Shown piece after piece: positions 6,116 to 8,084 of a stretch of 64,000 nucleotides of DNA. This DNA is from Veillonellaceae bacterium (GTDB lineage Bacteria; Bacillota; Negativicutes; Veillonellales; Negativicoccaceae). The notes under the pieces are model-generated. The model was not told the origin of the DNA and made no database searches. It saw only the letters and a program-made list of their open reading frames with translations. The translations under genes were made by a program, and so were the position numbers. The stretch is taken from assembly GCA_022771805.1 (NCBI GenBank), contig JALELM010000020.1, forward strand, positions 1 through 64,000, in the 5' to 3' direction. Position 1 is the stretch's first letter, and each line of letters begins with the position of its first letter.

Positions 6116-6289
6116 ATGTGGCGGGCGTATATCAGAGAAGATGTAGTGTTGCCTCGAAAGAAATCCAAAGAAGTGCAGCGGCTGGTCGATACGATGGAGG
6201 AATTGTATAAAGAATTGCAAGCGATGGACCCGGATACGCCGGAGTATATGGAAAAATCTGGGAATTTAATCGAACAAATGAAGAGTTAG
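6116..6289 (+). CDS. Small hypothetical protein, probably the 5' half of a frameshifted gene
   Basis: 57 residues from ATG 6116 (ribosome site GAGAGGTGA ends five bases before it; an in-frame GTG at 6107 lies inside that site). Charged and helical: RKKSKEVQRLVDTMEELYKEL then DPDTPEYMEK. It ends 84 bases before the kinase gene. Adding one A to the A5 run at 6252-6256 would join it to an open frame ending at 6387 that overlaps the kinase start, giving about 91 residues. So it is either a broken gene, a sequencing error, or a -1 frameshift site. Family unknown. Confidence 0.55.
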   Translation: MWRAYIREDVVLPRKKSKEVQRLVDTMEELYKELQAMDPDTPEYMEKSGNLIEQMKS

Positions 6290-6387
6290 ATATTGCCGCG
6301 AAAGTAGACGATAATGTTGGACGCGTGGATTATGCAAAATACTGTTTTCGGTACTACATAGAGGTCGACGCGGATGCAGATGAATGA
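6253..6387 (+). other. Downstream reading frame likely continuing the small gene at 6116
   Basis: Open frame without its own start, beginning AAA ATC TGG GAA right after the A5 run and ending TGA at 6385-6387, 14 bases inside the kinase gene. It reads KIWEFNRTNEELD, then VDYAKYCFRYYIEVDADADE: charged and protein-like rather than random. The overlap with the kinase start is what an intact upstream operon gene would show. Confidence 0.45.
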
Positions 6388-7327
6388 TTTTACGCAGAAC
6401 AAGCCCTTGCCGGGCTATACGTATGGAGGTAAAACGGGAGAAAAATTATGTATATTGCATAATAATGCAATATGGTTTTTGAAATTTCCGCAAAAACTAG
6501 TTACGCAACAAGCAAAATTGTCGTATTCAACGGCAGCGGTTTCGGAATACTTAGGCTCTCACATATACAAGACGATTGGCGTAGATACCCATGAAACGGA
6601 ATTGGGTATTTATGCAGGCAAGCCTGTGACGGCATGTAAAGATTTTAACAAAACAAACAATCAGTTTTATGAGTTTGGGGGCTTACTCAATACATTGACT
6701 TCTCCGGGAGCGGTGTATTCGGCAAACTTCGGCGCGGGCAATAAAGGGCATTATGTAGAGCTTGCGGAAATATTTAGCCGCATGGAAAACAGTTTTTCGA
6801 CTGCGGTGCAAGAACAAATGAAAGAACGATTTTGGCAAATGTTTGTTGTAGACGCGTTTATTAACAATCCAGACCGCAATACCGGAAACTGGGGGTATTT
6901 TATGAATTTGACCGGCGGATTTGTAGGATTGGCGCCGGTATATGATAACGGCAGTTCTTTTTTTCCGAAAGCAGCGGAAGATAACATTCAGTCCGACAGT
7001 TTCTTTCATCAGGTTATCTATAATAGCGCTACGCCGTTTTGCTGCGAGGCGGACAAGGTAGATGCGATTGCTGCGATCCGGAGACTTCCCGGGGCGTTTC
7101 GGAATGACGATTGGAATCGGCGGCTTGAAAAGGCTGTCGTTCAAGTGGTGCCGTTGTTGTTAAATAATATAAACGCATTTCAAGATAGGATTTTTGATAT
7201 TCCTGTAGAATTCCAAGGCGTGAAAATAATTAGTGAAAAGCGAAAAGCGTTTTACGGACATTTCCTGTCAAAGCGATTGGAGTTAGTATTCGAGCCGGCG
7301 CTGGAAAAGGCACTGCGGCAGGCGTGA
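6374..7327 (+). CDS. HipA/CtkA-like serine/threonine kinase
   Basis: 317 residues with a compact HipA-type fold. Seen: nucleotide-binding Lys in WFLKFP (K37); catalytic loop INNPDRNTGNWG with D167 and N172; metal-binding motif GLAPVYDNGSSF (D191) in place of DFG. These match HipA and Helicobacter CtkA kinases. There is no HipB-like helix-turn-helix gene nearby; the upstream partner is the small frameshifted gene. The ATG at 6374 has GAGG nine bases upstream. Base composition is clearly AT-richer than the flanking genes, suggesting transfer. Substrate unknown; a toxin-like or regulatory kinase is plausible. Confidence 0.8.
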   Translation: MQMNDFTQNKPLPGYTYGGKTGEKLCILHNNAIWFLKFPQKLVTQQAKLSYSTAAVSEYLGSHIYKTIGVDTHETELGIYAGKPVTACKDFNKTNNQFYEFGGLLNTLTSPGAVYSANFGAGNKGHYVELAEIFSRMENSFSTAVQEQMKERFWQMFVVDAFINNPDRNTGNWGYFMNLTGGFVGLAPVYDNGSSFFPKAAEDNIQSDSFFHQVIYNSATPFCCEADKVDAIAAIRRLPGAFRNDDWNRRLEKAVVQVVPLLLNNINAFQDRIFDIPVEFQGVKIISEKRKAFYGHFLSKRLELVFEPALEKALRQA

Positions 7328-7343
7328 GAAAATACGGCGTTTT

Positions 7344-8084
7344 ATGTTTACAAAACTGCAGGGAAGGGAAGTTACGGAGGGAAAAGCGGTGGAGCGTTGC
7401 GCCAAGTTAAATTTTCCGGAGGAGTATTGGCAAGATTTTGTGGTGCGCATGGCACATCACAGCACGGCGATTGAAGGGAATCGTTTAACGCAGGACGAAG
7501 TGAAACGTATTTTACTGGATCGCGTGATTCCTCGCGCCATGGACGAACGGGAATATTATGAAGTGCTGAATTATCGCGCATACAGCACCTATTTGCGAGA
7601 AAACTACACGCGGCCGATCGATTTGGATGTAATAAAAGAAACACAGGCCATGTTGCTGGCGCATATTCGTGAGGATGCCGGCCGCTTCAAGCAAGCGGAG
7701 AACATTATTTTGGGCGCGTCGTTTGTTCCTTCCAAGCCGTACCAGGTTATTGAGCATCTCCGAAACTGGTCGGATAATCTGCAATACCGCCTGGCAAACG
7801 CAGCGGATACAGATGACAAAATACGAGCCGTTATGGAAAGCCATTTGTACTTTGAACGGATTCATCCGTTCCCGGACGGCAACGGTCGTACAGGCCGCGC
7901 CCTGATGGTGCACAGCTGCCTGCACGAGGGCATTCCGCCGATTGTGATCGAACAAGAACAACGGCATGAGTATATTTGCGCCCTTGATGCCGCCGATACC
8001 GATAAACTCTTTGCGTTAGGCCGTGCACTGAGTGAAAAAGAGGGAAAGGTCATTGCCGCTTGGGCAACGCCGGGGCGTGATTAG
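7344..8084 (+). CDS. Fic family protein (AMP-transferase)
   Basis: Fic proteins usually transfer AMP from ATP to a target hydroxyl. Seen: full active-site motif HPFPDGNGRTGR (residues 174-185) and, near the N-terminus, STAIEG (40-45), the S/TxxxE(G/N) inhibitory helix of class II Fic proteins, so the enzyme should be self-inhibited. 246 residues from ATG 7344, whose ribosome site is poor; an in-frame GTG at 7389 has a strong GGAGGG site seven bases before it and is a serious alternative (231 residues). It follows the kinase by 16 bases and ends at a shared bidirectional terminator. Target unknown. Confidence 0.93.
   Translation: MFTKLQGREVTEGKAVERCAKLNFPEEYWQDFVVRMAHHSTAIEGNRLTQDEVKRILLDRVIPRAMDEREYYEVLNYRAYSTYLRENYTRPIDLDVIKETQAMLLAHIREDAGRFKQAENIILGASFVPSKPYQVIEHLRNWSDNLQYRLANAADTDDKIRAVMESHLYFERIHPFPDGNGRTGRALMVHSCLHEGIPPIVIEQEQRHEYICALDAADTDKLFALGRALSEKEGKVIAAWATPGRD

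What the first reader, a model, noticed from the sequence alone, without database searches (positions are those of the whole stretch)
6116..6387. Frameshifted or recoded small gene upstream of a HipA-like kinase
The 57-residue frame at 6116-6289 and an open frame at 6253-6387 join into one protein of about 91 residues if the A5 run at 6252-6256 gains one A. The joined product would overlap the kinase start by 14 bases, as operon genes do. Either the gene is broken in this strain, the assembly lost an A in a homopolymer, or the ribosome slips -1 at GAA AAA.
Basis: seen in the sequence. Interest (0 to 1): 0.72.

Follow-up and report, generated by a model that had tools for sequence, protein, structure and literature searches.

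The report
Frameshifted partner gene of CtkA-like kinase
A small gene sitting just before a HipA/CtkA-like kinase gene is broken by a one-base frameshift here, while two related copies in a neighbouring bacterium are whole, so this is most likely an ordinary recent gene breakage (or a sequence error) and not a programmed ribosome slip.

Summary
The 57-codon frame (6116-6289) and the -1 open frame (6253-6387) are parts of one gene. Negativicoccus massiliensis, same family, has two loci with this gene uninterrupted directly before the same kinase. The N-terminal part is 70% identical to one of them (E 1e-21), the C-terminal part 60% (E 2e-14). Both parts and the kinase show the same amino-acid-changing divergence (pN 0.21, 0.24, 0.21; synonymous sites saturated), so the break is recent or a sequence error. 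Programmed slippage is unsupported: no slippery heptamer, no unusual downstream fold (z +0.92), no frame change in either relative. The sampled assembly is not rich in frameshifts: 2 candidates in 162 aligned genes including this one, 1 of 135 in reverse. That favours a real mutation without proving it. The kinase keeps its conserved residues and is CtkA-like (3akj, E 7.6e-28). A small gene precedes such kinases at 22 of 30 loci read, three with an apparent helix-turn-helix. The likely role, an antitoxin-like inhibitor, is inferred. Overall an ordinary pseudogene or sequence error.

The parts
6116..6289 (+). N-terminal part of the frameshifted small gene (57 codons plus stop; about the first 46-47 codons are homologous, the rest is out-of-frame tail)
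   Evidence: translation; 70% identity to L003 residues 1-44, E 1.15e-21; A2 profile hit 6116-6250, E 8e-13
6252..6256 (+). A5 run at which the homologous reading passes to the -1 frame
   Evidence: sequence; position of the switch
6253..6387 (+). C-terminal part of the same gene, in the -1 frame; it holds no ATG
   Evidence: translation; 60% identity to L003 residues 48-90, E 2.4e-14; pN 0.24 against 0.21 for the N-terminal part
6374..7327 (+). HipA_C/CtkA-like kinase, 317 aa, conserved motifs intact; the conserved start may be ATG 6380
   Evidence: Pfam HipA_C E 2.2e-10; PDB 3akj CtkA E 7.6e-28; alignment A1
6380..6387 (+). 8-base overlap ATGAATGA between the end of the small gene and the conserved kinase start, identical in N. 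massiliensis L003
7344..8084 (+). Fic/DOC-family protein directly downstream; neighbour, not shown to be part of the unit
   Evidence: Pfam Fic E 1.1e-16; PADLOC PDC-S04 E 5.4e-67

Best explanation
The locus is a two-gene unit, a small partner gene followed by an overlapping CtkA-like (HipA_C) kinase gene, on a low-GC patch of a contig of a bacterium in the family of Negativicoccus. In this strain the partner gene has suffered a recent one-base frameshift at an A5 run. The product stops after 57 residues and loses the C-terminal half, which in a moderate-confidence model of the intact homologue holds most of the second helix, the third helix and the closing strand. By analogy with HipA-type modules the intact partner probably binds and restrains the kinase (inferred). 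The break also ends translation 84 bases before ATG 6374, which should weaken coupled translation of the kinase. This could be how the cell tolerates losing the restraint (inferred).
For: Two intact single-frame homologues before the same kinase in N. massiliensis. Both halves match them in order. Equal pN in both halves and in the kinase, with saturated pS, so selection kept the C half as protein until recently. The sampled assembly is not frameshift-rich: 2 candidates in 162 aligned reference genes, one of them this gene (its homologue was put in on purpose), against 1 of 135 in the reverse direction; 370 homopolymer runs of 5 or more lie in 145,656 aligned bases, and by my reading the one other candidate is not a homopolymer slip. 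Kinase motifs intact. A small gene sits directly upstream at 22 of 30 distinct kinase loci read, three of them with an apparent helix-turn-helix part (by eye).
Against: No reads and no second strain of this species could be examined, so a sequencing or assembly error is not excluded. A broken antitoxin beside an intact kinase is biologically unexpected; in N. massiliensis the second locus shows the opposite decay (intact small gene, truncated kinase). The antitoxin role rests on position only; 8 of the 30 kinase loci lack an adjacent small ORF. The intact partners have only weak, sub-cutoff hits in Pfam and NCBIfam and none in PHROGs or, for L003, PADLOC, and homology to partners in other genera is unproven (hhalign probability 26%).
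Confidence: 0.6

Rival explanations
1. Sequence or assembly error: the A run is misread in the consensus by one base, and the gene is intact in the organism.
For: The break is a single-base change at a homopolymer; there is no further decay in the C half and the downstream frame is open to the end; the kinase beside it is intact, as expected if the partner were intact too. The genome is a 20-contig draft, 95% complete.
Against: A5 is short; 78 A5 runs and 38 longer A runs lie in the window. In the sampled part of the assembly only one other frameshift candidate was found in 162 aligned genes, and by my reading it is not a homopolymer slip. This bounds the error rate only loosely.
Confidence: 0.32
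2. Programmed -1 ribosomal frameshifting at GAA AAA makes a full-length partner alongside a 57-residue form.
For: A lone AAA codon inside A5 can re-pair one base back, and a GGAG lies at 6241-6244, some 9 bases before it. The C half is conserved as protein.
Against: No X XXY YYZ heptamer (sequence). The downstream 84 bases fold no better than shuffles: z +0.92, 166 of 200 shuffles fold at least as well (pseudoknots not modelled). Both homologues found are single-frame.
Confidence: 0.04
3. The 57-residue product is the true, complete partner and the C-terminal frame is unrelated.
For: It has a good ribosome-binding site (AGAGGTG before ATG 6116) and an open frame.
Against: Neither homologue found ends there; the C frame has its own homology (E 2.4e-14 and 4.9e-7) and is under the same constraint.
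Confidence: 0.03

Closest known systems
CtkA (JHP0940) of Helicobacter pylori, PDB 3akj, HipA_C fold kinase
   Same: The kinase matches over residues 5-202 (E 7.6e-28) and keeps the residues conserved across the family alignment.
   Different: H. pylori CtkA is described as a pro-inflammatory kinase whose activity needs the Tfs3 secretion system (PMC5536186: start of the abstract in a listing, and six passages). Nothing I looked at here bears on secretion, and the unit here has a small upstream partner; I did not look at what precedes ctkA in H. pylori.
HipA-family kinase toxin-antitoxin modules (Gerdes 2021, PMC8262856: abstract, opening paragraphs and sections 5, 9, 10, 11, 13, 16 read)
   Same: Short core-kinase protein in a compact operon with a small partner; its 317 aa lie within the 279-321 aa given there for HipG/I/J/M kinases.
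   Different: The parts read describe partners with HTH, HipS, HipS-HIRAN, Stl-like or resolvase-like domains. The intact Negativicoccus partners matched no Pfam family above its cutoff, HTH families included. The window kinase was not placed in that paper's tree.
N. massiliensis loci L003 and L004 (the nearest relatives found)
   Same: The same small gene directly followed by the same kinase gene.
   Different: The small gene is intact in both; the kinase is intact in L003 and truncated at 96 codons in L004.

Membership tests
CtkA-like / HipA_C kinase | HipA_C domain above curated cutoff | tested here: met
   PF07804, 41 bits against cutoff 30.5
CtkA-like / HipA_C kinase | Sequence match to a solved CtkA | tested here: met
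   3akj, E 7.6e-28
CtkA-like / HipA_C kinase | Conserved catalytic residues | tested here: met
   D167, N172 and D191 nearly invariant in the 11-row alignment and present in the window; their assignment as catalytic is recalled
CtkA-like / HipA_C kinase | Kinase activity and toxicity | not testable with these tools
   needs experiment
Two-gene toxin-antitoxin module | Small partner gene directly upstream of, or overlapping, the kinase | tested here: met
   22 of 30 distinct loci; in the window the partner is present but broken
Two-gene toxin-antitoxin module | Partner neutralises the kinase | not testable with these tools
   no experiment; inferred from position
HipS antitoxin (HipA N-subdomain-1-like) | Detectable similarity to HipS or HipA N-terminal domain | tested here: inconclusive
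   no Pfam match above cutoff for the L003 or L004 partner; best PDB sequence match E 0.96, not Hip-related; no fold match with E <= 0.001 from a moderate model; no direct comparison with a HipS was run
HipB / HipR HTH antitoxin | Helix-turn-helix domain in the partner | tested here: not met
   no HTH family in the intact L003 and L004 partners; partners with an HTH-like part, read by eye, occur at L016, L023, L075
Programmed -1 frameshift gene | X XXY YYZ slippery heptamer | tested here: not met
   sequence ATG GAA AAA TCT
Programmed -1 frameshift gene | Downstream stimulatory structure | tested here: not met
   z +0.92; pseudoknots not modelled
Programmed -1 frameshift gene | Frame change conserved in relatives | tested here: not met
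   0 of 2 homologues have it

The most novel reading that the evidence does not exclude
CtkA-like kinases outside Helicobacter generally form two-gene inhibitor-kinase modules whose partner is either a small HTH-less protein or the same kind of domain fused behind an HTH. The window would then show a natural case where the inhibitor is lost but the kinase is kept, tolerated because the same frameshift uncouples kinase translation.
Probability: 0.25. Interest if true: 0.45.

Novelty: new member of a known kind. Interest (0 to 1): 0.22.

Why it matters
If the break is real, it is a natural test of whether CtkA-like kinases need their small partner. If it is a sequence error, the locus is just one more intact kinase-partner pair. 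Either way, the Negativicoccus partner reached no curated cutoff in the libraries searched, so such broken copies are easily missed by annotation.

Tried and rejected
Programmed slippage: rejected for lack of a heptamer, of structure and of a frame change in the two homologues. Internal start for the C half: the frame holds no ATG.

Other strains of the same species: no match to the junction pattern in viral contigs. Close relatives of the window kinase and of the partner profile were not found in viral contigs; the kinase profile A1 found 4 loci there. The L003 partner had no match in plasmids or phages. In 380 genomes of the class, 3 had a partner match at E 0.01: the window's own, N. massiliensis, and G085 (E 0.006, two stops inside), which is probably chance. 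In 398 genomes drawn from the phylum only the window's own genome matched; N. massiliensis, which matches, was evidently not in that draw. The genome-contig scan with the kinase gave one locus, N. massiliensis.

Deep homology of the Negativicoccus partner to partners of other genera: not shown (hhalign 26%; a profile of the other partners gave at best E 0.001 in a four-sequence test; two other partner groups match each other at 85%). Fold search of the moderate model (pLDDT 70.5): no match with E <= 0.001. CapK (PMC13373217) was checked as a possible relative: HipA and CtkA do not occur in its main text. Paper searches were read as listings; none showed a paper on this partner, but none was aimed at it alone. 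Promoter and terminator scan: nothing above shuffles. A first, smaller frameshift count (1 in 87 and 1 in 82) was replaced; one search did not recover the window pair, I think through its overlap filter. The reverse candidate differs, whose filters and samples differ.

Rows left out: plasmid hits H5 and H6 were not opened, so 4 of 6 plasmid hits and 2 of 2 phage hits were read. L022 duplicates L011 and L007 duplicates L003; both were left out of the 30. L009/L010 and L026/L027 are near-identical pairs counted separately.

Full report
What is there. In the window a 57-codon frame (6116-6289) is followed by a -1 open frame (6253-6387) and then by a kinase ORF at 6374-7327. The kinase has a HipA_C domain, matches CtkA of the PDB (3akj, E 7.6e-28), and in an 11-row alignment keeps the residues that are invariant or nearly so, among them D167, N172 and D191 (their catalytic role is recalled). 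A Fic-family gene follows at 7344-8084. The stretch 6116-7327 has 43.7% GC against 56.3% for the sampled genome (profile), which points to horizontal acquisition (inference).

Is it one gene? The nearest kinase relative is in G002, 56% identical, which is Negativicoccus massiliensis by the named record LT700188.1 of the same length. Directly before that kinase lies an uninterrupted 92-codon gene (L003 1233-1511). A second N. massiliensis locus, L004, has an uninterrupted 91-codon gene before a kinase cut at 96 codons. Searched separately, the window's first part is 70% identical to L003 residues 1-44 (E 1.15e-21) and the second part 60% identical to residues 48-90 (E 2.4e-14); L004 gives 38% and 34% (E 6.5e-8 and 4.9e-7). 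So 2 of 2 homologues found are single-frame and contain both parts. The overlap with the kinase start is shared between the window and L003: ATGAATGA in both.

How old is the break? Nei-Gojobori counts against L003 give pN 0.21 for the first 45 codons, 0.24 for 37 codons of the second part and 0.21 for the first 95 kinase codons, with pS 0.72, 0.86 and 0.76, i.e. saturated. The second part was therefore under the same protein-level constraint as the rest over nearly all of the divergence, and the frameshift is recent or is not in the organism at all.

Error or mutation? No second strain of the species and no reads were in reach. As a substitute I aligned reference ORFs from 783,501 bases of G002 to 345,654 bases of the window's genome. 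Of 162 ORFs with a clear match, 2 show a frameshift: this gene (its homologue put in on purpose through L005) and one on L037, where my reading of the DNA shows a gap in a poorly conserved linker and no homopolymer slip. In the reverse direction 1 of 135 shows one. In the 145,656 aligned bases there are 370 homopolymer runs of 5 or more (164 genes by its slightly different filter). The assembly is thus not visibly rich in homopolymer indels. This favours a real mutation but would still allow some errors in the whole genome.

Recoding? There is no X XXY YYZ heptamer. The downstream 84 bases fold no better than shuffles (z +0.92; pseudoknots not modelled). Neither homologue has a frame change. 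A GGAG at 6241-6244 and the AAA codon inside the A run are the only features in its favour.

What does the small gene do? A small ORF lies directly upstream of the kinase at 22 of 30 distinct loci read (duplicates L007 and L022 removed; 2 of 6 plasmid hits not opened). At three of them (L016, L023, L075) the partner carries an N-terminal helix-turn-helix-like part (read by eye; no profile search was run on those three). The 8 without are L008, L015, L017, L019, L026, L027, L074 and L076. The Negativicoccus version reaches no curated cutoff and could not be linked convincingly to the others. Its model has the order strand-helix-helix-helix-strand with moderate confidence (pLDDT 70.5, two sequences only), and the break falls in the second helix. 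Position and HTH-fused neighbours in the kinase family suggest an inhibitor of the kinase, as in HipA-type modules (PMC8262856, sections 5, 9, 10, 11, 13, 16 read). This is inference. In the window the short product ends 84 bases before ATG 6374, so translational coupling should be weakened (inference), although an AGAGG lies before that ATG (6360-6364).

Verdict. What may be new is only the partner family, so the interest is low.

Noticed in passing
L004 109-687 and 1489-1779: Second N. massiliensis locus: the small partner is intact but the kinase is cut at 96 codons; the gene upstream looks like a TIR-type protein (by eye).
   Followed up: partly
L003 92-3920: Apparent defence/TA island: resolvase-like ORF, an orphan partner-like ORF (543-734), a nucleotidyltransferase-like ORF (759-1130, PADLOC PDC-S09 E 1.3e-20), the kinase pair, and a zeta-toxin-like ORF on the other strand (by eye).
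   Followed up: partly
L008 (G033), reverse complement 1314-1514 and 1639-2268: A CtkA-like kinase that appears split over two ORFs, possibly a broken copy.
   Followed up: no
L037 5212-6268: The one other frameshift candidate in the sampled genome, near the C-terminus of a protein with a hydrophobic tail.
   Followed up: partly
L074 586-2859: In a viral contig a 757-aa ORF that looks like a GHKL-type ATPase (by eye) precedes a CtkA-like kinase.
   Followed up: no
window 7344-8084: Fic-family gene beside the kinase; a Fic gene also lies near the Megamonas plasmid kinase (L011), and a passage of PMC5536186 reports a fic-like gene as a rare alternative occupant of the ctkA site in H. pylori.
   Followed up: partly
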